DNA of 64,000 bases, taken from contig NZ_LNUP01000002.1 in NCBI RefSeq assembly GCF_001512295.1, forward strand, positions 338,027-402,026, written 5' to 3'. The notes under the pieces are model-generated. The model did not search any database and had not been told where the DNA came from. It saw only the letters and a program-made list of their open reading frames with translations. The DNA is from Pseudomonas sp. EpS/L25 (GTDB lineage: Bacteria > Pseudomonadota > Gammaproteobacteria > Pseudomonadales > Pseudomonadaceae). Below are positions 50,951 to 60,259 of this stretch, piece after piece. Each line of letters opens with the position of its first letter. Position 1 is the stretch's first letter. The position numbers and the translations under genes were made by a program.

Positions 50951-50980
50951 TTGACAGCCCTATCCGCCGCCTCCGATGAT
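50951..50980 (+). promoter_or_regulatory. Possible promoter before leader block 1
   Basis: TTGACA at 50951-50956 with a weak -10 (GATGAT, 18-bp spacer). It stands 38 bp before the structured block, as the better promoters do in the other copies, which is the main support. Confidence 0.45.
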
Positions 50981-50993
50981 TGCCCCATGTTCC

Positions 50994-51134
50994 GCTGACG
51001 TCGTCAGCAACATGCCCAGGCAGTTCTGGATCTCAAGACTGCAACGTGGTTACCCACGTCGATCCGCACCCATAGTTCGCCAAGCTTCCGGAGGCGCGAA
51101 CGGTTGACCGGTTGTACCGGTTGATGGAAGCACC
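50994..51134 (+). promoter_or_regulatory. Long structured leader RNA, copy 1
   Basis: First of four related blocks. Helices seen: GCTGAC/GTCAGC; GCAGT/ACTGC; loop GGATC with downstream GATCC; ACGTGG/CCACGT; GTTCGC/GCGAAC; ACCGG/CCGGT; and loop GCTTCC with GGAAGC at the 3' end. Two of these are pseudoknots. It leads directly into the short leader of the gene at 51221. Confidence 0.8.
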
Positions 51135-51149
51135 GTTCACAGCAGCTTC

Positions 51150-51220
51150 ACCCACCCAGCGGGGACACTCCCCGCCAGGGTCAGTGTTTCTCCGCATTCA
51201 GCCTTTGCAGGAGAGACATC
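51150..51220 (+). promoter_or_regulatory. Pseudoknot/SD-hairpin leader of the 51221 gene
   Basis: Hairpin GCGGGG/CCCCGC (51159-51175) with loop ACACT, which can pair with AGTGT at 51183-51187. Then TCTCC-GCA (51189-51196) pairs with TGC-A-GGAGA (51206-51214), burying the Shine-Dalgarno GGAGA. Confidence 0.8.
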
Positions 51221-51706
51221 ATGGCCGCTATCACCCAGCGTTTTTTCGGCATCCTCGGTTCCGCACTGAGCTTCGTGGCCATACCGCTACGGCGCCCCGT
51301 CGTCGCTGAACCCATTGACCTCTGCTCAACAAATCGCGAACCGGAGCTGGAGCATCCCCCGGTACTCGAAACGTGGAGCGAATCTACTGATGATGCACCC
51401 GTCGAGCCCGAGCAACTCAGCATCGAGGCGCAAGTCGACGAACTCTTCCACCAGGCGTGCCTAAGCTATCCCACGTACGAGGTGATGGTGAATAAGGCGT
51501 TCGCCGCCTCCATGCGGAGGGTCTTCGGTGACGACGAGCAGGGCAGCGAAGACGCGATCAAGGCCTTTGCTTATGCACGTGAGGAGTTCTACTACCTCAG
51601 CCCTGACGAAGAGGAGCATCTCGACCAAGAGAACGCAGCTAATGGAATCTGCGGCCACGGTTTGGACAACCGGATCTGCCCCCGCGGATGCGGCGAGATC
51701 GATTGA
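51221..51706 (+). CDS. Acidic conserved ICE protein, unknown function
   Basis: A 161-residue protein with a hydrophobic N-terminal helix (residues 6-26), a very acidic middle and a Cys/His-containing C-terminus (NGICGHGLDNRICPRGCGEID) that could bind a metal. It is alone between a structured leader and a terminator, so it is its own transcription unit. No family recognised. Confidence 0.75.
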   Translation: MAAITQRFFGILGSALSFVAIPLRRPVVAEPIDLCSTNREPELEHPPVLETWSESTDDAPVEPEQLSIEAQVDELFHQACLSYPTYEVMVNKAFAASMRRVFGDDEQGSEDAIKAFAYAREEFYYLSPDEEEHLDQENAANGICGHGLDNRICPRGCGEID

Positions 51707-51716
51707 CGCCCCTTAC

Positions 51717-51740
51717 AGCCCTCCTTCTGGAGGGCTTTTT
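51717..51740 (+). terminator. Terminator after the 51221 gene
   Basis: 8-bp stem AGCCCTCC/GGAGGGCT with loop TTCT followed by TTTT. Confidence 0.9.
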
Positions 51741-51753
51741 CATGGAGTGGCAA

Positions 51754-51782
51754 TTGACAACGGCAGCGGCCCTGAACATTCT
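51754..51782 (+). promoter_or_regulatory. Sigma70-type promoter before leader block 2
   Basis: TTGACA (51754-51759), 17-bp spacer, CATTCT (51777-51782). Transcription would begin near 51789, just before the structured block. The spacer end CGGCCCTGAA is identical in the promoter at 52880. Confidence 0.75.
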
Positions 51783-51795
51783 CAAGGAGTGTTTA

Positions 51796-51937
51796 GCTGA
51801 CGTCGTCAGCAACATGCCCAGGCAGTTCTGGATCTCATGACTGCGATGCGCCTCAAGCGTATTGATCCAAACCCATAGTTCGCCAAGCTTCCGGAGGCGC
51901 GAACAGTTGGCCGGTACCCCCGGTCGATGGAAGCACC
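51796..51937 (+). promoter_or_regulatory. Long structured leader RNA, copy 2
   Basis: Same helix set as copy 1. Changes preserve pairing: ATGCGC/GCGTAT replaces ACGTGG/CCACGT, and the CCGG hairpin keeps pairing through a G-T. Loop GCTTCC and 3' GGAAGC are retained. Leads into the 52026 gene leader. Confidence 0.8.
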
Positions 51938-51952
51938 TTGCACTACTGCTCT

Positions 51953-52025
51953 ACCCACCCAGCGGGGACTCACTCCCCGCCCAGGGTCAGTGTTTCTCCG
52001 CGATTCCACCTGCAGGAGAAACACC
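51953..52025 (+). promoter_or_regulatory. Pseudoknot/SD-hairpin leader of the 52026 gene
   Basis: Hairpin GCGGGG/CCCCGC (51962-51980) with loop ACTCACT, whose CACT can pair with AGTG (51989-51992). TTTCTCC (51993-51999) pairs perfectly with GGAGAAA (52015-52021), covering the Shine-Dalgarno. Confidence 0.8.
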
Positions 52026-52448
52026 ATGACCCCTACCACCCTGAGCTTTCGGCTTGGTGAAGCGGCCGGTACTGTCGTGCGTGAATGCATGCGGTCCATG
52101 CGCAACGCCCAGTCTCAAACTGTCGAAGTCGCTCAATCGGCTGCAAGCACTCCGGCCCTGCGTCTCGTGGAGTTTCCGAAGCCGACTCTCTCGGTCGAAG
52201 AACTCGAGAAGATGGATCACACCCCGGCGATTGTCAGGCTGCGTGGCGTGAACCTGAACGACTGGTATGCGGCAAACACTCGCGAAGCCCAGGCTGAAAA
52301 GCCGAAGCGTCCGCGTAAGCCACGCAAACCCAAGGCTGTAGCTCCAGCGCCTGAGCCTATCGCTCCGGCTCCTACGCGCGTGCTGCGTCCGGGCCCCCTG
52401 GACCAGTTGCTTGGCCCGGTCGACCTTGAAGTCGACATGGCTGGCTGA
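52026..52448 (+). CDS. Conserved ICE protein with basic, Pro-rich C-terminus
   Basis: A 140-residue protein: a helical N-terminal part, a middle with HTPAIVRLRGVNLNDWYAAN, then a Lys/Arg/Pro/Ala-rich stretch (AEKPKRPRKPRKPKAVAPAPEPIAPAP) resembling DNA-binding tails. The start follows GGAGA in the leader hairpin. First gene of the unit 52026-52828. No family recognised. Confidence 0.75.
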   Translation: MTPTTLSFRLGEAAGTVVRECMRSMRNAQSQTVEVAQSAASTPALRLVEFPKPTLSVEELEKMDHTPAIVRLRGVNLNDWYAANTREAQAEKPKRPRKPRKPKAVAPAPEPIAPAPTRVLRPGPLDQLLGPVDLEVDMAG

Positions 52449-52456
52449 TCCACACC

Positions 52457-52524
52457 CTACCTACCCCTGTCGGGAAACCTCCCGTCAAGGCGGTTTTCCT
52501 GATGCCACAATCGAAAGGAAAGCT
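52457..52524 (+). promoter_or_regulatory. Pseudoknot/SD-hairpin leader of the 52525 gene
   Basis: Hairpin CGGGA/TCCCG (52471-52484) with loop AACC pairing GGTT (52492-52495); TTTCC (52495-52499) pairs with GGAAA (52517-52521), which holds the Shine-Dalgarno. The two pairings share base 52495. Confidence 0.75.
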
Positions 52525-52701
52525 ATGGCGTCGAAACGACTCGCTGCAATTGCAGACGACTTCCGTAAGGTTGGTACCACCGCCATGGGCGCGGCTCTGA
52601 TCGGTGTGTTCCTGAGCGATCACCAGATCCTCACGGTCTATACCTTCATGTCCGGTGCTATACTCTGGCTCATTGGTATCTGCCTCACACGGGAGGACTG
52701 A
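52525..52701 (+). CDS. Small two-helix membrane protein
   Basis: A 58-residue protein with a basic start (MASKRLAAIADDFRKVG) and two hydrophobic segments (about 20-32 and 37-53), a likely helical hairpin in the inner membrane. It is followed one base later by another small membrane protein, so the pair may act together. Function unknown. Confidence 0.7.
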   Translation: MASKRLAAIADDFRKVGTTAMGAALIGVFLSDHQILTVYTFMSGAILWLIGICLTRED

Positions 52702-52702
52702 C

Positions 52703-52828
52703 ATGGACCAAACCACTTTTGGCGTTCTTATGTTGAGCGGCATGCTGGTGTTCTTTAGCGCTGTAGCGGTTTGGGCCGACTGGCCCAACGTGAAGCAGAA
52801 GGCACAGAAGCTGATCCGCTCGCATTGA
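52703..52828 (+). CDS. Small single-TM protein (41 aa)
   Basis: MDQTTFGVLMLSGMLVFFSAVAVWADW... is one TM helix followed by a basic tail. GGAGG lies seven bases upstream, at the end of the previous gene. It is the last gene of its unit, before a terminator. Function unknown. Confidence 0.65.
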   Translation: MDQTTFGVLMLSGMLVFFSAVAVWADWPNVKQKAQKLIRSH

Positions 52829-52842
52829 TGCACCGCTCTACC

Positions 52843-52866
52843 AAAGCCCTCCTCGGAGGGCTTTTT
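52843..52866 (+). terminator. Terminator after the 52703 gene
   Basis: Stem AAAGCCCTCC/GGAGGGCTTT with a TC centre (effectively CTCG loop) and a T run. Confidence 0.9.
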
Positions 52867-52879
52867 CATTTCCAGGGTA

Positions 52880-52908
52880 TTGACAAGCGATACGGCCCTG
52901 AACATTCT
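52880..52908 (+). promoter_or_regulatory. Sigma70-type promoter before leader block 3
   Basis: TTGACA (52880-52885), 17-bp spacer, CATTCT (52903-52908), 13 bp before the structured block. Confidence 0.75.
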
Positions 52909-52921
52909 GAGGATGTATGCC

Positions 52922-53063
52922 GCTGACATTGTCAGCAACATGCCCCAGGCAGTCTCGGATCTCACGACTGCGATGCGCTCCAAGCGCATTGATCCAAACC
53001 CAAGTTCGCTAAGCATTCGGTAGCGCGAACGATTGACCGGCCCCCCCGGTTGATGAATGCACC
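52922..53063 (+). promoter_or_regulatory. Long structured leader RNA, copy 3
   Basis: Same helices. Compensatory changes: ATGCGC/GCGCAT, and the 3' pseudoknot now pairs GCATTC with GAATGC instead of GCTTCC with GGAAGC. The first hairpin loop is ATT instead of GTC. Confidence 0.8.
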
Positions 53064-53065
53064 TT

Positions 53066-53127
53066 CCACCCACCCTCGACGGGACTACCCGTCAGGGCCG
53101 GTCTCCGTCTAAACCTGGAGACCTTCC
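53066..53127 (+). promoter_or_regulatory. SD-hairpin leader of the 53128 gene
   Basis: Hairpin GACGGG/CCCGTC (53078-53093, loop ACTA), then GGTCTCC (53100-53106) pairs perfectly with GGAGACC (53117-53123), which is the Shine-Dalgarno. The loop-to-downstream pairing is the weakest of the set here (only ACC with GGT). Confidence 0.75.
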
Positions 53128-53346
53128 ATGAAAAGCGGTCTTGCGTTGTACCAGGCATTGCGCTCCATCGATGTCCCTGATGACAAAGCAACTGCTGTTG
53201 TCGATGCTCTGGAGTCCGATATGCAAACTCACCTTGCTACCAAGGCTGATCTCGCACAGCTCGAACTCAAGCTCACCATCCGCATGGGCGTCATGATTTC
53301 TACTGCTGTCGGCATCCTGCTGGCCGCGATGAAATTCATGCACTGA
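53128..53346 (+). CDS. Small coiled-coil/TM protein (DUF1640-like)
   Basis: A 72-residue protein with a helical, coiled-coil-type N-terminal two thirds (VVDALESDMQTHLATKADLAQLELKL) and a C-terminal TM helix (MGVMISTAVGILLAAMKF). The layout resembles DUF1640/CCDC90-type membrane-anchored coiled coils. First gene of the long unit 53128-57175. Confidence 0.7.
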   Translation: MKSGLALYQALRSIDVPDDKATAVVDALESDMQTHLATKADLAQLELKLTIRMGVMISTAVGILLAAMKFMH

Positions 53347-53376
53347 CCTGGCACCACCCTTTCTGGCTACACCCAC

Positions 53377-53449
53377 CCACGCGGGGAATACTCTTCCCCT
53401 CCCGGGCAAGGTGTTCTCCGTTTTCACCTATTGAAACTGGAGAGTCACC
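53377..53449 (+). promoter_or_regulatory. Pseudoknot/SD-hairpin leader of the DUF3577 gene
   Basis: Hairpin GGGGAA/TTCCCC (53383-53399), loop TACTC. AATACT (53387-53392) can pair with GGTGTT (53410-53415) using two G-T pairs. TCTCC-GTTTT (53415-53424) pairs with GAAAC-T-GGAGA (53433-53443), burying the Shine-Dalgarno. Confidence 0.8.
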
Positions 53450-53980
53450 ATGAGCAACCAAGCCAACGAAAGCCAATACTTCGACCTGCACACCACCGGT
53501 ATCGGTTACCTCAACCGCATCCGCGAAGTGAAACCCAAAGGCAGAGGCGCAAAGCCGTTTTTGGCCGTCTCCGTAGCAGCCCTGTGCGGCAGCAAAGACG
53601 ATGTGGAATACCGCTACATCGACTGCAATGTCGTCGGCGCCGAAGCTGAAAAGCTGATTCGCCGTTGCATTGATGCCGTCGACGCTGAGAAGAAGGTCCT
53701 CGTGTCCTTCCGCATCGGTGATTGCTGGGCTGATCCCTTCACCTACTCCTCCGGACCGAAGCAGGGACAACACGGCGCAAGCCTGAAAGGTCGTCTCCTG
53801 TACATCGGCTGGATCAAGGTCGATGGGGAAATTGTCCACCAAGCCAAACCGCGCGAAGCAGCCCCGGCTGCACCGCAAGGCGAGGAAGTGACTCCTGCCA
53901 ACGAAGAGAGCCAACCGGCCCACTCTGAGGTGACTGAACAACAGCAACCCCCGCGTCGTCAGCAACGTCGCCGCGCCTGA
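53450..53980 (+). CDS. STY4534-family ICE replication protein (DUF3577)
   Basis: A 176-residue protein of the DUF3577/STY4534 family: YFDLHTTGIGYLNRIREVKPKGRGAKPFLAVSVAALCGSKDDVEYRYIDCNVVG, then a Gln/Pro/Arg-rich tail (PPRRQQRRRA). It is annotated as replication-associated in genomic islands; the mechanism is unknown. An SSB-like or OB-type fold is conceivable. Preceded by a structured leader and followed by a terminator inside the operon. Confidence 0.9.
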   Translation: MSNQANESQYFDLHTTGIGYLNRIREVKPKGRGAKPFLAVSVAALCGSKDDVEYRYIDCNVVGAEAEKLIRRCIDAVDAEKKVLVSFRIGDCWADPFTYSSGPKQGQHGASLKGRLLYIGWIKVDGEIVHQAKPREAAPAAPQGEEVTPANEESQPAHSEVTEQQQPPRRQQRRRA

Positions 53981-53992
53981 AATAACACCCTG

Positions 53993-54012
53993 AGCGCCTT
54001 CGGGCGCTTTCC
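53993..54012 (+). terminator. Terminator inside the long unit, after DUF3577
   Basis: Stem AGCGCC/GGCGCT with loop TTCG and a short T-rich tail (TTTCC). No promoter is evident before the next gene, so transcripts must read through for downstream expression. Confidence 0.7.
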
Positions 54013-54022
54013 TTCTCTTCGC

Positions 54023-54094
54023 ACACCCATCCGGGGGCACCATCTCCCGGACCGGGCGCATGGTGATCTCCATAGCTGAATTTTGGAGCCCATC
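54023..54094 (+). promoter_or_regulatory. Pseudoknot/SD-hairpin leader of the 54095 gene
   Basis: Hairpin CCGGG/CCCGG (54031-54050) with a 10-nt loop containing CACCAT, perfectly complementary to ATGGTG (54060-54065). CTCCA (54068-54072) pairs with TGGAG (54084-54088), the Shine-Dalgarno. Confidence 0.8.
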
Positions 54095-54262
54095 ATGCAA
54101 GTCATCGCCACCATCAAGTCCGAGCTGCCCGCCCTGCCCATCGTTGCCGAAGTCTCCTATGACGACGTCACCGAAGAGCTGCTGAGCAGCGACCTGTTCT
54201 GCGACAACGCCTGGTTCCTGTTCGAGATGAACGCCACCAGCGCCGACCGCGTCCAGGCCTGA
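54095..54262 (+). CDS. Small conserved ICE protein (55 aa)
   Basis: MQVIATIKSELPALPIVAEVSYDDVTEELLSSDLF... ends at a TGA at 54260-54262. It is acidic with a short beta start and a helix; protein-like composition, a clear ribosome-binding site and a leader of the common type make it a probable gene. Between two terminators. Function unknown. Confidence 0.65.
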   Translation: MQVIATIKSELPALPIVAEVSYDDVTEELLSSDLFCDNAWFLFEMNATSADRVQA

Positions 54263-54277
54263 CTGACCACACCCTAT

Positions 54278-54304
54278 AGGCGCCCTCGGGCGCCTTTGTC
54301 TTTT
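54278..54304 (+). terminator. Terminator before the 54314 gene
   Basis: Stem GGCGCC/GGCGCC (extended by A-T) with loop CTCG, then TTTGTCTTTT. It lies immediately upstream of the next ribosome-binding site. Confidence 0.75.
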
Positions 54305-54313
54305 GGAGGCCCC

Positions 54314-54562
54314 ATGGCTACCGATACCCCTGCAGGCTTCGGCCGGCTCGCCTTCGAATCCGAAGGCAAACACTTTCCCCTTCAAGTACTGCGCAGCAAC
54401 GCGGGCTACTACATCGGCACTGTCGATGAGGATGGCTTTCCGCTGAGTCGCGAGTCGAAGGAGTACTTCCGCAAGCAGGCCGAGGCTGACCAAGCCCTGG
54501 CAGAAGGCACCTGGACCCAGCACGTTTTGTCGTCGCTCGTTCCTGCCTTGCTTGGCTTCTAA
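54314..54562 (+). CDS. Small hypothetical ICE protein
   Basis: An 82-residue protein (MATDTPAGFGRLAFESEGKHFPLQVLRSNAGYYIGTVDEDGFPLSRES...) with GGAGG five bases before the ATG. The beta-rich first half suggests a small compact domain. No promoter lies between it and the terminator just upstream. No family recognised. Confidence 0.7.
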   Translation: MATDTPAGFGRLAFESEGKHFPLQVLRSNAGYYIGTVDEDGFPLSRESKEYFRKQAEADQALAEGTWTQHVLSSLVPALLGF

Positions 54563-54573
54563 CCCGCTTCGTC

Positions 54574-54634
54574 TACCCTTAAGGGATTCGTCATCCCTTG
54601 AGGGCATGATGGATCCAGGGACGTTGGAGGCATC
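54574..54634 (+). promoter_or_regulatory. Pseudoknot/SD-hairpin leader of the 54635 gene
   Basis: Hairpin AAGGGAT/ATCCCTT (54581-54599), loop TCGTC. CGTCAT (54589-54594) can pair with ATGATG (54606-54611). GATG...TCC (54608-54616) can pair with GGA...CATC (54626-54634) around the Shine-Dalgarno. Confidence 0.7.
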
Positions 54635-55192
54635 ATGGAATTGATTATTCAACACTTCGAAGGCCAGGCTTTCGTCAGCAACCCGTACGCACCTGGTACG
54701 TCTCTTCGCCAAGACCTCTTCGAGCGGCAGTTCACCATCCTCCTGCATGGGTCGATGGAGCTGTTTGAGGACTCCGGTCGCGGCACCTTCCACATCGATG
54801 GCTACGTCCAGCTCGGCCAGTGCGGCCTGCTTGATGACATCCTGCCCATCGCCCTGGACGCAGTCCGACAAGACCGCTATCCGGCACCTGCAGCAGCCCT
54901 TACCTTCTGCCCGAAGCGGATCTCCGTTTCCGATCGCCACGGCCACCTGGTCATGGCTGGCAAGGTGGATCGTGAGAGCCGCAGCATCGACTGGATCGCC
55001 CCCTGCCGCACGGCCGAGGAAGAGAAGGTGGTGCTGGCTCAGATCCAGCTGTTGCGTTCGCGCTCTGCGTTCCAACACGGCTGGGACAACTTCAGTACCT
55101 CACGACTGCTAGATACCGACGCTGACCTACTCAAGGGCCGGCTGGTCCACAAAGCCTGGCGGCCGCACGTCCGTGCCCTGCTAAGCGCCTGA
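54635..55192 (+). CDS. Hypothetical ICE protein
   Basis: A 185-residue protein (MELIIQHFEGQAFVSNPYAPGTSLRQDLFERQFTILLHGSMELFED...) with alternating beta and helix pattern and no catalytic motif that I recognise. The start has GGAGG five bases upstream. It has its own structured leader within the long unit. Confidence 0.75.
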   Translation: MELIIQHFEGQAFVSNPYAPGTSLRQDLFERQFTILLHGSMELFEDSGRGTFHIDGYVQLGQCGLLDDILPIALDAVRQDRYPAPAAALTFCPKRISVSDRHGHLVMAGKVDRESRSIDWIAPCRTAEEEKVVLAQIQLLRSRSAFQHGWDNFSTSRLLDTDADLLKGRLVHKAWRPHVRALLSA

Positions 55193-55199
55193 TCTCACC

Positions 55200-55261
55200 C
55201 ACACCCATCAGGGGACACCGTCCCCTAGGGGCGGTTGTCCGCCAACGCTTTGGAGACAACC
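55200..55261 (+). promoter_or_regulatory. Pseudoknot/SD-hairpin leader of radC
   Basis: Hairpin AGGGGAC/GTCCCCT (55210-55226). GGACACCG can pair with CGGTTGTCC (55232-55240) with one bulge. GGTTGTC (55233-55239) pairs perfectly with GACAACC (55255-55261) around the GGAG. The two downstream pairings use the same bases and exclude each other. Confidence 0.8.
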
Positions 55262-55762
55262 ATGACCAACGTTCACACGCTCGACAGTACCTCGGCCATA
55301 CGCGCTCGTGAAGACGCCATCATCGCCGAAGCCAAGGTCATCTTGGACCAGCGGCTCTTCACCCGCGGAAGGCGCCTCAACAGTCCTGACGATGTCCGCA
55401 GCTACCTGAAGCTCAAGCTCGCTCCTGAGCCTAACGAAGTCTTCGCCGTCATCTTCATGGATTCCCCATTTCGGGTGATCGCGTTCGAGATCCTGCAGTA
55501 CGGCACCATCGACAAGGCCTTGATCAGTCCTCGACACGTTGCCCAACGCTGCCTGAAGCACAACGCCGCCGCGGTCATCGTGGCGCACAATCACCCCTCC
55601 GGTAATCCTGAGCCTAGCGAGGACGATTACAGCCTCACTGAACGTCTGCGGGACGCGCTAGCGCTGCTGGATATCCAGCTGCTGGACCACTTCATCGTGG
55701 GCAAAGGCCAACCGCTCTCGATGGCGGAAGCCGGACGTTTCACCTTCGCCACCTCGGGCTGA
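55262..55762 (+). CDS. radC: RadC/JAB-domain protein
   Basis: A 166-residue RadC-type MPN/JAB domain protein. The metal site is intact: the HNHPSGNPEPSEDD motif, with Glu in the preceding strand region (NEVFAVIFMD). It lacks the N-terminal helix-hairpin-helix of chromosomal RadC, as is typical for ICE- and phage-borne copies. Its role is unproven; a DNA-repair or antirestriction accessory function has been proposed for such proteins. The ATG at 55262 is fixed by the leader structure. Confidence 0.92.
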   Translation: MTNVHTLDSTSAIRAREDAIIAEAKVILDQRLFTRGRRLNSPDDVRSYLKLKLAPEPNEVFAVIFMDSPFRVIAFEILQYGTIDKALISPRHVAQRCLKHNAAAVIVAHNHPSGNPEPSEDDYSLTERLRDALALLDIQLLDHFIVGKGQPLSMAEAGRFTFATSG

Positions 55763-55788
55763 TACAGCCCCTAGCACTACACCTTCCA

Positions 55789-55844
55789 TTCACCTACCCA
55801 GAGGGGCTGACCCTCTGGGCAGCTCCTCGTCTGAGGAGTCGTCA
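55789..55844 (+). promoter_or_regulatory. Pseudoknot/SD-hairpin leader of the 55845 gene
   Basis: Hairpin CAGAGGG/CCCTCTG (55799-55817), loop GCTGA. GCTG pairs CAGC (55820-55823). CTCCTC (55823-55828) pairs perfectly with GAGGAG (55833-55838), the Shine-Dalgarno. The two share base 55823. Confidence 0.8.
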
Positions 55845-56204
55845 ATGAACAATTCGTCCACTTCCACCGCCCAGTCGGTAACCGAACACAGCGGCCTGGT
55901 AGCCGTCCTGACCGATCTACAACGCCAAGGGTGGCGCGCCTCTGAGCTGTGGGATGGCGAGGCCTGGGGGCCTATCCACGCCATCTGGTCCGCTGATGAG
56001 ATCGCTAAGCACGCGGCAGAAACCGAGTTGGCCAAGCTGCGCTTCCTATCAGAAAGCACCGCCGGCCACGAAGGTGTGATGCTGCTGGTATGGGGCAATA
56101 GCCCTATCGAGCTGATCGCCGACATGACCATGGCGAACGGCTTCGGCGAAGCCGTCGAGCTGGCCCAGCGAAGCGTTTGGCCGCACTACCCGGAGGAGGA
56201 ATAG
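55845..56204 (+). CDS. Hypothetical ICE protein
   Basis: A 119-residue acidic protein (SGLVAVLTDLQRQGWRASELWDGEAWGPIHAIWSADEIAKHAAETELAKLRF...). The alternating pattern suggests a small alpha/beta domain. Two bases separate its stop from the ATG of the broken zinc-ribbon gene. No family recognised. Confidence 0.75.
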   Translation: MNNSSTSTAQSVTEHSGLVAVLTDLQRQGWRASELWDGEAWGPIHAIWSADEIAKHAAETELAKLRFLSESTAGHEGVMLLVWGNSPIELIADMTMANGFGEAVELAQRSVWPHYPEEE

Positions 56205-56206
56205 CC

Positions 56207-56397
56207 ATGTGCTGGACCTGCCCGCAGTGCGGCTCTGCTGAGGTCTCAGCCGAGGGGGAGTGATACCACCTCGACCCGACATCGATGCGCCCGAGGACGC
56301 TGAGTCCGACTGGGACGACACCTGCAAGATGACCTGCAACACCTGCCAACACCAGGATCTCTCGATGTTCTTCGCGAGTGACCTGGAACAACCCTAA
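56207..56397 (+). pseudogene. Frameshifted small zinc-ribbon gene
   Basis: From ATG 56207 the frame reads MCWTCPQCGSAEVSAEGE then TGA (56261). One base shifted, the sequence continues IPPRPDIDAPEDAESDWDDTCKMTCNTCQHQDLSMFFASDLEQP to TAA at 56395, supplying a second CxxC. Restoring one G at GGGGGAG (56255-56261) joins the frames as EGEVIPPRPD. Either a real 1-bp deletion, a sequencing error in a G run, or a programmed shift. Confidence 0.6.
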
Positions 56398-56423
56398 CCC
56401 TAGCTCTGCTGAGCTCCATCAAC

Positions 56424-56470
56424 CACCACACCACCCAGACTGGGCGGCTCCCCTTCCTGAGGAGAGCCCC
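56424..56470 (+). promoter_or_regulatory. Variant SD-hairpin leader of the 56471 gene
   Basis: A short first hairpin CCCA/TGGG (56434-56444), then GGCTC (56446-56450) pairs with GAGCC (56464-56468) with inner CC/GG, covering the GGAG. The loop pairing seen in other leaders is not clear. Confidence 0.6.
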
Positions 56471-57175
56471 ATGACCACCCCTAACCCCTTCATTCGCGGC
56501 TACCAGGACCTGTTTATCCGCCGCGAGCTGCTGATCACGTACGACGAGCACTTCGAGCCTTGCTACCGACAGATAACGGCCGAGCAGCAGGATGCAGCCG
56601 ACGACCAACTGGTAGGGCACTACAGTGTCTTCAACGGAACCCATGCCCTGGCTATCGAGCCGGAGGAAGTCACTGCTGACCAGCACACGCTCTACCCGGC
56701 CAATGGCCAGGTACGCGCGGTTGTCTATGCGCTTCGTGCCATTGAGAATGGCGAGGAGATTCACCTCGGTGACACTGAGACTCTGGCTAGGGCCCAAGGC
56801 CTGCTTAAGCGGATCCAGTTCGAAACCGGCTTCTACAGTCGAGCCTTCGAGATCACCTCGTCCCATCTGCCCTATGACGAGTGGGATGACCTGCAGGACC
56901 TGGTGCAGCACGCTGACACCGACCAGCTGATGTTCGAGTGCTTCACCCTGCCAGACAGCGACGCCGTCGGCTTCAAGCTGCACGGTACGCCTTGGACGGA
57001 TGAGCACCTGAACCAGCTTGAAGGGTTCGGACTATCGGCCCTGCAAGCCAAGCAACACGAAGAAGGCTTCATGCCTGAGACCATACGGGTGCTCGGCCTG
57101 GCAGGCCAGGCCGACGTCAGGATTCTGATCCTTGATCCCAACGGTTGCCTCCTCGAACGACTGCCCCAGTTCTAG
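56471..57175 (+). CDS. Hypothetical ICE protein
   Basis: A 234-residue acidic protein (MTTPNPFIRGYQDLFIRRELLITYDEHFEPCYRQITAEQQDAADD...). Segments such as AFEITSSHLPYDEWDDLQDLV and VRILILDPNGCLLERLPQF suggest an alpha/beta fold. GAGGAGAGCCCC precedes the ATG. It is the last gene of the long unit, before a terminator. No family recognised with confidence. Confidence 0.75.
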   Translation: MTTPNPFIRGYQDLFIRRELLITYDEHFEPCYRQITAEQQDAADDQLVGHYSVFNGTHALAIEPEEVTADQHTLYPANGQVRAVVYALRAIENGEEIHLGDTETLARAQGLLKRIQFETGFYSRAFEITSSHLPYDEWDDLQDLVQHADTDQLMFECFTLPDSDAVGFKLHGTPWTDEHLNQLEGFGLSALQAKQHEEGFMPETIRVLGLAGQADVRILILDPNGCLLERLPQF

Positions 57176-57185
57176 CCTCTATATC

Positions 57186-57207
57186 AGGCGCCTTCGGGCG
57201 TCTTTTT
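57186..57207 (+). terminator. Terminator of the long unit
   Basis: 7-bp stem AGGCGCC/GGCGTCT (one G-T pair) with loop TTCG, followed by TTTT. Confidence 0.85.
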
Positions 57208-57273
57208 CTTGTCATTTCAAGTCTCAAAAGCACGCATCTATTCTGCCTCAAATCTATTTTTAATCAGAAGCGT

Positions 57274-57501
57274 TCAGCCATTGGCCCAGTCAAGTACTGC
57301 CTGATCGTATGACATCAGCCCTCCGTTGTGCAGCCGACACTCCTCGGCTGCTTTCCGGCAGTTAGCTTTCAACTGGTCAATAGTAACCCCATGTGCCTCT
57401 GCAACATGATTAGCAACTTTTGCCCCTCCACCGTTACGTACCGCAAGGTACTGCATATAGTACGAAGGAGCATCTTGAAATGGATCTTTTCTATCAACCA
57501 T
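57274..57501 (-). CDS. Hypothetical cargo protein
   Basis: A 75-residue minus-strand protein (MVDRKDPFQDAPSYYMQYLAVRNGGGAKVANHVAEAHGV...), with AAGGAG eight bases before the ATG at 57501; the longer start at 57525 lacks this. Helical, soluble. More AT-rich than the ICE backbone. With the next minus-strand gene it may form a cargo pair. No family recognised. Confidence 0.65.
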   Translation of the reverse strand: MVDRKDPFQDAPSYYMQYLAVRNGGGAKVANHVAEAHGVTIDQLKANCRKAAEECRLHNGGLMSYDQAVLDWANG

Positions 57502-57603
57502 ACCCTCAACTCCTTTATCGCACAATCAAGACTGCCTTTTACCCGCATAAAACGACGAGCTGCATTTAAGCCAAACGCTCTTAGACTGAAAAAGATTTCT
57601 TTC

Positions 57604-57849
57604 TTAATCGATCCCTACACCCTGATTACAACCATCGTCCAAATCAAGCAGAAAGCGAAACGCTTTTTTAATAATAACCTGATTTTGTTTATTTTCGATA
57701 AGGCACAAGCCAAGCATATAATGGAGATCTTGGGACTCTAATCGTCCTTTGCACTCTTCGATCTGTCGCAGCAAACACACAATGTGATCCTCCTGTATAG
57801 CGTATCGCTCAAGAAGATCTAAGCCATGTTTGCGATTTTCCTGGTTCAT
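57604..57849 (-). CDS. Hypothetical cargo protein
   Basis: An 81-residue minus-strand protein (MNQENRKHGLDLLERYAIQEDHIVCLLRQIEECKGRLES...), with AAGGAGG seven bases before the ATG. Predicted helical, possibly coiled coil. AT-rich codons. It is upstream of the 57274 gene on the same strand. No family recognised. Confidence 0.65.
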   Translation of the reverse strand: MNQENRKHGLDLLERYAIQEDHIVCLLRQIEECKGRLESQDLHYMLGLCLIENKQNQVIIKKAFRFLLDLDDGCNQGVGID

Positions 57850-58003
57850 TCATACACCTCCTTTTTGCAATTTTCAGCGGCGATCCATTTTTGCGAGCCG
57901 GCTGTCGGCGTAAATGAAAATACTGCCCCAAAAATCACAGCTTAGCCTAGCCTCATAGCAGCGACGGGCTGCCTAGCGATTCTATAGACCTAAGGTAAAT
58001 GCA

Positions 58004-58252
58004 ATGAAAGGCTTGGCCCAGATCCTGGAAGCCCTCGATCCCCCGGTAAAGCATCTTGCGGAGTGGCGCACTGAAGGCTTGTTTTTGACATTGCTTGACC
58101 CTGGGGTACCGGCCAAAGTCACGCGCTTTATCTCAAGAAAGACGTTAGCCGATGCGGATACCCTGAACGTAGTCGTCCTCTATGCCGTCAACGAGCTCCG
58201 CCTGAAGGGATCGCATATCCCGTTGGAGCCCGGTACTCTACTCATACGGTAG
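58004..58252 (+). CDS. Hypothetical cargo protein
   Basis: An 82-residue protein (MKGLAQILEALDPPVKHLAEWRTEGLFLTLLDPGVPAKVTRFISRKTLADADTLNVVVLYAVNELRLKG...), divergent from the pair at 57.3-57.8 kb, with AAGG nine bases upstream. Protein-like composition. Function unknown. Confidence 0.55.
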   Translation: MKGLAQILEALDPPVKHLAEWRTEGLFLTLLDPGVPAKVTRFISRKTLADADTLNVVVLYAVNELRLKGSHIPLEPGTLLIR

Positions 58253-58278
58253 CCCTCGCCCTCGCCCTCGCCCTCGCC
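58252..58278. repeat. Hexanucleotide repeat GCCCTC
   Basis: Four and a half tandem copies of GCCCTC, just after the stop codon of the 58004 gene. Its number could vary by slippage; no coding effect is expected in the current frame. Confidence 0.85.
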
Positions 58279-58988
58279 TATGGTGGCGCTTTCCCTCGTT
58301 AGCACATCCCACGAGGCGTCAAATTGAAGAAACCAGGATTACCTTAACTCATAGGCTTAATGCTATTGAATTGGTTTTCGCTGATTCACCCGCAAGGCTG
58401 GGGCTGTGGGTTTAATTCTTTCTAGAAAAAAAATTAAGCGAAACGCTTGATACATAAAACCAGCGGCACAACGACACACCAGGTACGTCTTGGCACAAGT
58501 GAACGCAAGCGGTCTACCTCACAACTCTTCACAAAAAATTCGGCATCGACATTAAAGCTGTTTCGCCGCGACGATTTGACGAGCAGGATGTTGAGATTCT
58601 TATTGCCGCACACTTTGGGATTCCATGTCGAAAAGCAACGCACTTGGCGAGGGCGTGCTGTGCTTCATCGTGGGAGGCACCCTTGCGATCATTCTACTTT
58701 CAATCGTACTATTCGATTTTTGGTGATCTAACGTGCCAAGTGGAAATGAAGCTGGATCGGCGTGGGCCTTGTTAGGCTGTTACGCATCTGTCCCCGCGTC
58801 CTGAATTCTCAAAACGAATGCTCGCAGATGCAATGTTCGCAGATGCAAGACGCTATAAAGAGCCTAATTACGGCGATCACACTTTATTCTTGCCACGTAG
58901 CGGATTGCCTAGCAGACCTGTCACTTTTGTTTACTGAAGAGATACCCAAGGCGATCCTCTGACACTCAAGCGGTGACGATTCAAACGC
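58279..58988. other. AT-rich stretch without a convincing gene
   Basis: Frames at 58434-58643 (-), 58447-58731 (+) and 58762-58962 (+) lack ribosome-binding sites and have irregular composition. The decamer-like CTCGCAGATGCAATG/TTCGCAGATGCAAG is repeated in tandem near 58821-58848. Probably decayed cargo. Confidence 0.4.
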
Positions 58989-59222
58989 TTATAGAGTTTC
59001 TCGAAGCACTTCCAGATAGAAATAAGTATCTATACCAATAATCGCAACACAGTTGAATAGCTTGGCGGCCCTCCCTCTGCCGAAGTACAAAACTTGCAAC
59101 CCCCAATACAGCATAATCAAAAAAGACATTACCAAGCAGGAGACTACTGCAGCAGCATGCCCTTTAAATATAAAAAAACGCCAAAGCTCAGGTAAAAAAT
59201 TACGCTCAAAACACATATCCAC
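58989..59222 (-). CDS. Small two-TM membrane protein
   Basis: A 77-residue minus-strand protein. A GTG start at 59222 has GAGG about eight bases upstream; ATG at 59216 is an alternative. Hydrophobic segments at about 24-46 (AVVSCLVMSFLIMLYWGLQVLYF) and 55-70 suggest an inner-membrane hairpin. AT-rich cargo composition. Function unknown. Confidence 0.55.
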   Translation of the reverse strand: MDMCFERNFLPELWRFFIFKGHAAAVVSCLVMSFLIMLYWGLQVLYFGRGRAAKLFNCVAIIGIDTYFYLEVLRETL

Positions 59223-59386
59223 CAGTCAGGCCTCACCATCTCCGGTCGCAGCTCCTGACGGAATTTTTAGATGCCAAAGCGTTCTCCAAGACGTTGTCAA
59301 GAATCATAGATAGAGTCTTCACATTAGAGCGGCTGCATCCGATCGAGGCTCGTCGATACTTAGATGAAACCTTTCCAGGATAATTA

Positions 59387-59415
59387 TTGACTATCTCTCA
59401 ATCTGATTTCAGAAT
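59387..59415 (+). promoter_or_regulatory. Sigma70-type promoter before leader block 4
   Basis: TTGACT (59387-59392), 17-bp spacer, CAGAAT (59410-59415), 14 bp before the structured block, the same geometry as at 51754 and 52880. Confidence 0.7.
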
Positions 59416-59429
59416 CCATCACACATGCC

Positions 59430-59554
59430 GCTGACGTTGTCAGCCATGCACAGGTGGTCAGGATCTCAAGACCACGGCGCCCCGCGCTGATCCAACCCCT
59501 AAGCTTGCCGAGCATCCGGTAGCGCAAGCGGTCGGCCCCGCCGATGGATGCACC
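59430..59554 (+). promoter_or_regulatory. Long structured leader RNA, copy 4 (divergent)
   Basis: The most diverged copy, and the most informative. GTGGTC/GACCAC replaces GCAGT/ACTGC; GCTTGC/GCAAGC replaces GTTCGC/GCGAAC; TCGGC/GCCGA replaces ACCGG/CCGGT; the 3' pseudoknot pairs GCATCC with GGATGC. GGATC/GATCC and GCTGAC/GTCAGC are kept. Confidence 0.8.
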
Positions 59555-59626: not shown

Positions 59627-60259
59627 ATGATCAAGATCCCCGGCCACCTGGCCATCCGCACCATCCAGGGACGCAACGGCGCTTTTAACGTCGGCCGGCT
59701 CTCTACCTCTATCGGCGAATTCGTCATCAAGGACGCTGTGCTCGAGCAACACGTCGAGGGCAAGTACCGCGGCGAGTTCGTCATCACCGAGATCCGTGCA
59801 TCGTCCTACAGCTCCGGCGGCCGCCTGGTCATCGAGATTCGCGCGCGCCTGGACAGCATGGTGCTCGAGGACCTTGATGCTCTGACGGCCTACGACAACG
59901 CGCAGATCGATGCGCAGTCGCCGGATCCGCTCGATGAAGAGCAATCTGTCGCGGCACCGCCGCCAAAGGCTCGACCACAACCCTCTCGCCCCGCCAGGCC
60001 TGCCAGCGCTCCGGTAGCGCCTGCACACGACAACGCACCCTTCGGGATGCCGCCATCACCAGCAGTTGCTCCGGTAACGCCTGCGCCTGATGTCGATGAG
60101 GCTGACCAGGAGCTCTTCGGTACGGTCTGGCCACTTGGCGAGACCGTACGGCTGGACTCCACGGTCGACCGGCACCGCCTCCGGCAGCAATGCCAGCGGT
60201 TGGGCGAGCTGGGCTACGCCATGGACTTCAAGTCGCAGGCCTGGAACCGCGCGGCCTGA
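59627..60259 (+). CDS. DUF3275 family protein
   Basis: A 210-residue ICE backbone protein: N-terminal DUF3275 domain (IKIPGHLAIRTIQGRNGAFNVGRLSTSIGEFVIKDAVLEQHVEGKYRGEFVITEI), a Pro/Ala-rich linker (about 108-158) and a C-terminal segment (FGTVWPLGETVRLDSTVDRHRLRQQCQRLGELGY). Function unknown. First gene of the fourth leader-controlled unit. Confidence 0.9.
   Translation: MIKIPGHLAIRTIQGRNGAFNVGRLSTSIGEFVIKDAVLEQHVEGKYRGEFVITEIRASSYSSGGRLVIEIRARLDSMVLEDLDALTAYDNAQIDAQSPDPLDEEQSVAAPPPKARPQPSRPARPASAPVAPAHDNAPFGMPPSPAVAPVTPAPDVDEADQELFGTVWPLGETVRLDSTVDRHRLRQQCQRLGELGYAMDFKSQAWNRAA

What the first reader, a model, noticed from the sequence alone, without database searches (positions are those of the whole stretch)
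50994..59554. Four copies of a covarying, multi-pseudoknot 5' RNA in one ICE
Blocks at 50994-51134, 51796-51937, 52922-53063 and 59430-59554 share helix order while sequence drifts. Compensatory sets: GCAGT/ACTGC to GTGGTC/GACCAC; ACGTGG/CCACGT to ATGCGC/GCGCAT; GTTCGC/GCGAAC to GCTTGC/GCAAGC; ACCGG/CCGGT to TCGGC/GCCGA. Two long-range pairings from hairpin loops, GGATC with GATCC, and GCTTCC/GGAAGC changing to GCATTC/GAATGC and GCATCC/GGATGC, look like pseudoknots. Three copies start 13-15 bp after a TTGAC-N17-(CATTCT/CAGAAT) promoter; the first has a weaker one. Such covariation is strong evidence for a selected RNA structure. It could be a riboswitch, a protein- or sRNA-binding leader, or an antitermination RNA.
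Basis: partly seen in the sequence, partly recalled or inferred. Interest (0 to 1): 0.95.

Follow-up and report, generated by a model that had tools for sequence, protein, structure and literature searches.

The report
radC RNA caps on ICE transcripts
Four stretches of a likely mobile element in a Pseudomonas-family genome match radC RNA, a known RNA family whose function is unexplained; paired mutations across 134 relatives support a predicted fold with two pseudoknots, and the RNA likely forms the first bases of each message, where it would slow the message's decay.

Summary
All four blocks match Rfam RF01754, radC RNA (86.5 to 102.4 bits, cut-off 40), so this is a new member of a family published in 2010 without a known function. 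On that alignment the untrained pairs hold in 91.2% of cells, against 31 to 40% for slid partners. Where my scan found a sigma-70-like promoter (61 of 132), its -10 box ends 3 nt before the RNA in 46 of 61, so the RNA probably begins at +1. ICEclc carries five radC RNAs; three head transcripts that a published study calls highly abundant in stationary phase, and Northern sizes suggest these end before the next unit, which speaks against processive antitermination. I commit, at modest confidence, to a structured 5' cap that slows mRNA decay; a translational switch is the main rival. In passing, a roughly 690-nt conserved structured RNA with radC RNA as its 5' domain turned up in relatives; Rfam 15 has only its radC part.

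The parts
50984..51133 (+). radC RNA copy 1
   Evidence: RF01754 102.4 bits at 50976-51131; own model R1 131.4 bits
51786..51936 (+). radC RNA copy 2
   Evidence: RF01754 86.5 bits at 51778-51934; R1 121.9 bits
52912..53062 (+). radC RNA copy 3
   Evidence: RF01754 90.5 bits at 52902-53060; R1 123.7 bits
59422..59553 (+). radC RNA copy 4
   Evidence: RF01754 90.8 bits at 59414-59551; R1 96.4 bits
50986..51014 (+). copy 1 helix P1: outer CATG 50986-50989 with 51011-51014, inner GCTGAC 50994-50999 with 51003-51008
   Evidence: outer 89.6% and inner 99.1% of cells paired
51020..51042 (+). copy 1 helix P2 (51020-51025 with 51037-51042)
   Evidence: 97.7% of cells paired, 5 of 6 pairs with change on both sides
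51028..51065 (+). copy 1 pseudoknot PK1: GGATC 51028-51032 with GATCC 51061-51065
   Evidence: not in the trained model; 76.4% of cells in fixed register; with free register 105 of 132 have 5 or more bp, own score 13.1, permuted maximum 10.2
51044..51059 (+). copy 1 helix P3 (51044-51049 with 51054-51059)
   Evidence: 93.0% of cells paired, 6 of 6 pairs with change on both sides
51075..51101 (+). copy 1 helix P4: GTTCGC 51075-51080 with GCGAAC 51096-51101
   Evidence: not in the trained model; 98.2% of cells paired, 6 of 6 pairs with change on both sides
51084..51131 (+). copy 1 pseudoknot PK2: GCTTCC 51084-51089 with GGAAGC 51126-51131
   Evidence: not in the trained model; 97.5% of cells paired, 4 of 6 pairs with change on both sides
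51107..51121 (+). copy 1 helix P5 core (51107-51111 with 51117-51121)
   Evidence: 92.1% of cells paired, 8 of 8 pairs with change on both sides
50951..50980 (+). promoter-like TTGACA-N18-GATGAT before copy 1
   Evidence: not tested
51754..51782 (+). promoter-like TTGACA-N17-CATTCT before copy 2
   Evidence: read; second hexamer too weak for the scan
52880..52908 (+). promoter-like TTGACA-N17-CATTCT before copy 3
   Evidence: read; second hexamer too weak for the scan
59387..59415 (+). promoter-like TTGACT-N17-CAGAAT before copy 4
51184..51219 (+). copy 1 helix H7 that would occlude the ribosome site: GTGTTTCTCC 51184-51193 with GGAGAGACAT 51210-51219
   Evidence: population tests
51990..52024 (+). 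copy 2 helix H7: GTGTTTCTCC with GGAGAAACAC
53100..53123 (+). copy 3 helix H7: GGTCTCCG with TGGAGACC
51717..51736 (+). terminator-like hairpin between unit 1 and the promoter of copy 2
   Evidence: 9 such sites found, shuffles 7.1 +/- 2.2
52843..52864 (+). terminator-like hairpin between unit 2 and the promoter of copy 3
51221..51706 (+). first ORF after copy 1, 161 aa
   Evidence: no Pfam or NCBIfam match
52026..52448 (+). first ORF after copy 2, 140 aa
   Evidence: no Pfam or NCBIfam match
53128..53346 (+). first ORF after copy 3, 72 aa
   Evidence: no Pfam or NCBIfam match
53450..53980 (+). second ORF after copy 3: DUF3577, STY4534 family ICE replication protein
   Evidence: PF12101 6.3e-53; NF040584 4e-52
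55262..55762 (+). RadC-like JAB protein, later in the same direction as copy 3
   Evidence: PF04002 2.6e-42
59627..60259 (+). first ORF after copy 4: DUF3275
   Evidence: PF11679 2e-69

Best explanation
The four blocks are copies of radC RNA (RF01754), a leader with two pseudoknots predicted from covariation, which likely begins at the first transcribed base of each transcription unit and would act as a structured 5' cap that slows decay of the message. Shown by calls: family membership, covariation of all helices including P4, PK1 and PK2, the + strand bias, and the fixed spacing to a -10-like box. Inferred: that transcription starts there (no start site was mapped in the window), that helix P1 buries the 5' end, and that this hinders 5'-end-dependent decay. 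A second, gene-level layer, a helix H7 over the ribosome site, is conserved behind most copies but is predicted only. Internal copies, as before radC in the conjugation operon, would have to act after cleavage.
For: Strand: G-U cells exceed A-C cells 283 to 69 in the trained helices, 28 to 2 in PK2, 13 to 2 in P4. In PMC2892462 (abstract, Results and Discussion read) the transcripts of ORF81655, ORF87986 and ORF84835 are called highly abundant in stationary phase; primer extension put the ORF81655 start about 250 bp upstream of its start codon, where RNA4 begins 227 nt upstream, and 5'-RACE failed there although the transcript is abundant. PMC9286271 (passages): read coverage before ORF81655 is the highest of all, yet its GFP fusion is no brighter than that of the integrase promoter, which its authors take as post-transcriptional control. 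The same RNA heads a roughly 690-nt RNA with no start codon nearby, which a translational switch would not explain.
Against: No half-life has been measured. 40 of 132 RNAs show neither promoter pattern, among them the radC-gene class, where the RNA overlaps the 3' end of a thioredoxin-like gene inside the conjugation operon, so a primary 5' end is not general. The fixed spacing may partly be common descent. Nearly invariant unpaired bases (CCC before P2) suggest a specific partner rather than passive protection. In PMC2892462 the distal genes of the same ICEclc transcripts, and ORF53587 of the radC-led one, are scarce. RNA-seq steps before ORF84835 and ORF89247 without promoter activity were read by the authors as incomplete fragments or processing; by eye I see promoter-like motifs there.
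Confidence: 0.38

Rival explanations
1. A translational switch: the RNA binds a small molecule or protein and opens or closes helix H7 over the ribosome site of the first gene.
For: H7 is conserved in 100 distinct linkers: mean score 16.1 against 11.7 when the upstream part is shuffled, 52% against 16% at 15 or more; it covaries, own 15.3 against permuted mean 13.2, maximum 14.1 of 200. No terminator stands in the leaders that I read. Nearly invariant unpaired bases.
Against: Predicted pairing of the ribosome site does not beat shuffled upstream sequence clearly (mean 0.89, n 99, against 0.84, n 60). H7-like helices also stand before some genes of the window that have no radC RNA. In the 690-nt form the start codon lies about 600 nt away. 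No ligand known; the 2010 paper marks riboswitch as '?' (PMC2864571, passages).
Confidence: 0.27
2. An operator for an ICE-encoded single-strand-binding protein (DUF3577/STY4534), as the phage T4 gene 32 protein binds a pseudoknot in its own leader (recalled, no call).
For: DUF3577 is the commonest family behind the RNA: 15 of 48 first genes chosen for variety. Its model resembles SSB-type OB folds, which fill most of the 50 rows shown. Among 398 genomes, 73 of 78 with DUF3577 have radC RNA.
Against: 60 of 133 genomes with radC RNA lack DUF3577. Co-occurrence follows from sharing one element. The model is middling (mean pLDDT 76.2, pTM 0.61), only one match has E below 0.001 and that one is an RNA-editing protein.
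Confidence: 0.1
3. A processive antitermination RNA that lets polymerase pass terminators in the operon, like put RNA or EAR (recalled).
For: It stands at the start of transcription units, and terminator-like hairpins lie inside unit 3 (53992-54009, 54278-54295).
Against: Terminator-like sites are not above shuffles (9 against 7.1 +/- 2.2). ICEclc units led by RNA2 and RNA3 give Northern bands of 3.0 and 2.6 kb, against 2.7 and 2.3 kb calculated from ORFs (PMC2892462), which fits leader plus genes and an end before the next unit.
Confidence: 0.1
4. A structure of the single DNA strand during transfer, or an independent trans-acting small RNA.
For: The genes are conjugation genes, and the 2010 paper raised the single-strand DNA idea for STAXI (PMC2864571, passages).
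Against: G-U over A-C bias and the promoter spacing fit transcription from the + strand; an SD-led ORF starts 50 to 130 nt behind 103 of 134 distinct RNAs.
Confidence: 0.08

Closest known systems
radC RNA, Rfam RF01754 (Weinberg et al. 2010, PMC2864571)
   Same: All four copies pass the gathering score over the full model length. The paper's table rates it certainly RNA, probably cis-regulatory, riboswitch uncertain (passages).
   Different: The Rfam structure line shown by cmscan lacks P4, PK1 and PK2 and pairs three bases that compete with PK2 and P4. PMC7657543 already lists radC/RF01754 among families whose covariation supports pairs missing from the database structure, without saying in the part that I read which pairs, so these may not be new.
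STAXI motif (PMC2864571, passages)
   Same: Tandem pseudoknots near mobile-element genes for DNA handling.
   Different: No STAXI match in the window at gathering score; the pseudoknots here are of two different sizes with inserted hairpins, not repeats of one unit.
T4 gene 32 leader pseudoknot (recalled)
   Same: Pseudoknot in a leader upstream of a gene for an SSB-like protein, in about a third of the first genes sampled.
   Different: Several unrelated genes share the RNA; no binding shown.

Membership tests
radC RNA RF01754 | Score above the curated cut-off over the whole model | tested here: met
   86.5 to 102.4 bits, cut-off 40, model 1-149 of 149, four of four
radC RNA RF01754 | P1, P2, P3 and P5 with covariation | tested here: met
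   89.6 to 99.1% of cells paired per helix on 134 distinct sequences; alignment was fitted to these
radC RNA RF01754 | Location upstream of radC and other mobile-element genes | tested here: met
   First genes: RadC 6, DUF3577 15, DUF3275 1 of 48 scanned; in the window radC itself is not the first gene
riboswitch | Binds a metabolite | not testable with these tools
   needs in-line probing
riboswitch | Expression platform behind the aptamer | tested here: inconclusive
   H7 conserved and covarying, but occlusion not clearly above composition
processive antitermination RNA | Transcripts read through terminators | tested here: inconclusive
   published Northern sizes for ICEclc units suggest normal ends; terminator-like sites in the window not above chance; not assayed
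STAXI | Match to an Rfam model | tested here: not met
   only radC and a tRNA at gathering score in the window
5' stabilising leader | Structured element at the very 5' end of the mRNA | tested here: inconclusive
   -10 box spacing; start sites not mapped
5' stabilising leader | Longer half-life with than without it | not testable with these tools
   none

The most novel reading that the evidence does not exclude
radC RNA is a portable 5'-end module, a double-pseudoknot cap fixed at +1, that conjugative elements put in front of whatever they need in bulk at transfer: short leaders of replication, RadC and conjugation genes, and an undescribed structured RNA of about 690 nt that precedes YfjI/DUF3987 or integrase genes. 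Cap and cargo are read independently of the gene that follows.
Probability: 0.3. Interest if true: 0.78.

Novelty: new member of a known kind. Interest (0 to 1): 0.5.

Why it matters
radC RNA has been on file since 2010 without a function. Placing five copies on ICEclc, a well-studied laboratory element with published transcript maps, makes it directly testable, and the promoter spacing narrows the possible mechanisms. If a 5' cap is right, it would be a mobile-element way to hold mRNA in starving cells. The 690-nt radC-headed RNA is a candidate new large bacterial RNA.

Tried and rejected
Viral contigs: an exact pattern of the P1 region found 0 of the IMG/VR collection. Papers: 'radC RNA' and 'radC motif' in 0 papers of the held library; 'RF01754' in 2; a four-term search in 0; so nothing on its function was found in these searches, which cover only open-licence PMC papers. 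PMC7423338 and PMC13098234 were searched for terms with no hit. A sequence search of DUF3577 against solved structures gave only weak matches (best E 0.21). Ribosome-site occlusion by plain folding was not decisive. Processive antitermination and a DNA-strand role were considered and ranked low for the reasons in the rivals. For PK1 the fixed-register count is only 76.4% because the strand slips by one column in the GGATC group; I tested it again with free register. In the 690-nt block one of five covariation measures, further pair types, was no higher than in shuffles (49 against 49.9), and that structure was derived from the same alignment.
Full report
What it is. The genome has no other copy. 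Among 13 genomes of the genus 7 have it, among 398 of the family 133, and among 369 of the class 2, counting the window's own; large searches scored at most 7 or 8 candidates per genome, so copy numbers are lower bounds.

Structure. I aligned 32 copies and built model R1 with P1, P2, P3 and P5 only, leaving out P4 and both pseudoknots so that they could be tested. R1 searched 100 of the 143 loci then held and gave 146 matches, 134 distinct. On this alignment P4 pairs in 98.2%, PK2 in 97.5% and PK1 in 76.4% of cells; together 91.2%, against 78.6 +/- 0.5% in shuffles and 31 to 40% for slid partners; 264 double-change cells against 67 +/- 11. With a free register, PK1 reaches 5 or more pairs in 105 of 132, mean score 13.1 against a permuted mean of 9.5 and maximum of 10.2 in 500. 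Twelve of 134 rows lack P4 and P5, one because the contig ends; the others carry domain I alone. The Rfam model lacks these three elements as printed by cmscan. PMC7657543 had already noted that covariation in radC supports pairs missing from the database structure (section read in part), so I do not claim the pseudoknots as new.

Strand and start. G-U cells exceed A-C cells in every element, as expected if the + strand is the folded RNA. In 61 of 132 copies a sigma-70-like promoter stands directly upstream, in 31 another motif by a loose pattern of mine, and in 40 neither. In the first group the -10 box ends 3 nt before the model in 46 of 61. Counting any NANNNT hexamer, the offsets 12 and 13 before the inner P1 helix hold 39 and 75 of 133, other offsets 0 to 14. 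With the usual 5 to 9 nt from -10 to start (recalled), transcription would begin in the 5' strand of P1. Terminator-like hairpins lie within 160 nt upstream in 34 of 132, as before copies 2 and 3 here.

What follows. An SD-led ORF starts 50 to 130 nt behind 103 of 134 distinct RNAs; 5 had no ORF in reach, mostly at contig ends. Of 48 first genes chosen for variety, 15 are DUF3577, 6 RadC, 2 KfrB-like, 1 DUF3275, 1 AIG2-like and the rest match nothing. The leaders carry a helix H7 over the ribosome site which covaries, is weaker in 18 chromosomal genes of the window (mean 6.7), but also appears before some genes of the element without radC RNA, and which plain folding does not separate from composition.

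ICEclc. That it is P. knackmussii B13 is my inference. R1 finds five radC RNAs there, four with their own upstream motif and one, before radC (ORF58432), overlapping the end of the thioredoxin-like ORF59110; in that part the numbering is shifted by 15. PMC2892462 (abstract, Results, Discussion) reports for these units: highly abundant stationary-phase transcripts for ORF81655, ORF87986 and ORF84835; at 72 h the four highest of its 21 probes are ORF81655, 87986, 84835 and 75419, all in radC-led units; Northern sizes of 3.0 and 2.6 kb against 2.7 and 2.3 kb from ORFs; a weak primer extension end about 250 bp before ORF81655 and no 5'-RACE product. Against my reading, distal probes of the same units and ORF53587 are low. 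PMC9286271 (passages) lists ORF88400, 81655 and 58432 among nine bistable promoters (3 of 9 with radC RNA), and coverage steps without promoter activity before ORF73676, 84835 and 89247 (2 of 3 with radC RNA).

Mechanism. One RNA per transcription unit, at a fixed distance from the -10 box, independent of the gene that follows, on transcripts that accumulate in stationary phase: this fits best a 5'-terminal structure that protects mRNA, for which 5' stem-loops are an established way in bacteria (recalled). The conserved unpaired bases and the internal copies do not fit easily, so I give it 0.38. A translational switch through H7 comes next.

A larger RNA. In part of the family, radC RNA is followed not by an ORF but by about 520 conserved bases. 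A DNA search found this block in 85 of 398 genomes, 81 of them at E 1e-25 or better and 4 only as short pieces. Of 50 loci fetched, 44 have a radC RNA directly before it (30 of 30 and 14 of 20). Rfam finds only radC there. On 34 of the 44, indels are rarely multiples of three (9 of 182) and variation shows no codon phase; 15 of 90 predicted pairs outside the radC part change on both sides, with 85 such cells against 26.8 +/- 5.8, while one measure does not exceed shuffles. A DUF3987 or integrase-like ORF follows, as in a P. putida plasmid (YfjI family gene 20 bases behind the match). Of 133 radC-positive genomes, 73 have DUF3577, 77 have the block and 4 neither.

Verdict. Known family, real and well supported; function still open but now testable in a laboratory element.

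Noticed in passing
L153:1346-2040, L177:1339-2026 and relatives (L153-L202): A roughly 690-nt conserved, apparently non-coding structured RNA with radC RNA as its 5' domain, before DUF3987 or integrase-like genes; Rfam 15 matches only the radC part in the five loci scanned.
   Followed up: partly
L057:1546-1645, L091:753-852, L097:1841-1940, L107:3524-3619, L041:2880-2980: Short radC RNAs with domain I only (P1, P2, P3, PK1), before a 265-270 aa gene, weakly KfrB-like in two cases.
   Followed up: partly
L144:19999-20145; L024, L032, L054 and similar: Before radC in conjugation operons the RNA overlaps the 3' end of a thioredoxin-like gene, whose stop codon lies in the 5' strand of P2.
   Followed up: partly
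window:53450-53980: DUF3577 (STY4534 family) has a predicted SSB-like OB fold; double-domain versions occur in relatives.
   Followed up: partly
window:51140-51220, 51940-52025, 53065-53127, 53370-53449, 54024-54093, 55196-55261, 55790-55844: A recurring gene leader, CACCCA-type stretch, G/C hairpin and helix over the ribosome site, also before genes of the element without radC RNA.
   Followed up: partly
L146:5570-12117: An Enterobacter ludwigii plasmid carries four strong radC RNAs and one weak one on the other strand.
   Followed up: no
L152:6001-6124: An unannotated, unverified record named Bacteriophage sp. holds a radC RNA-like stretch at 77.8% identity.
   Followed up: no
upstream of L048, L051, L089, L107 and of RNA1-RNA4 in ICEclc: A second upstream motif of the form AANNCGG, about ten bases, CCGATT, about 28 bases before a CATNCT box; possibly the 27-bp motif of PMC9286271, whose letters I did not see.
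   Followed up: no
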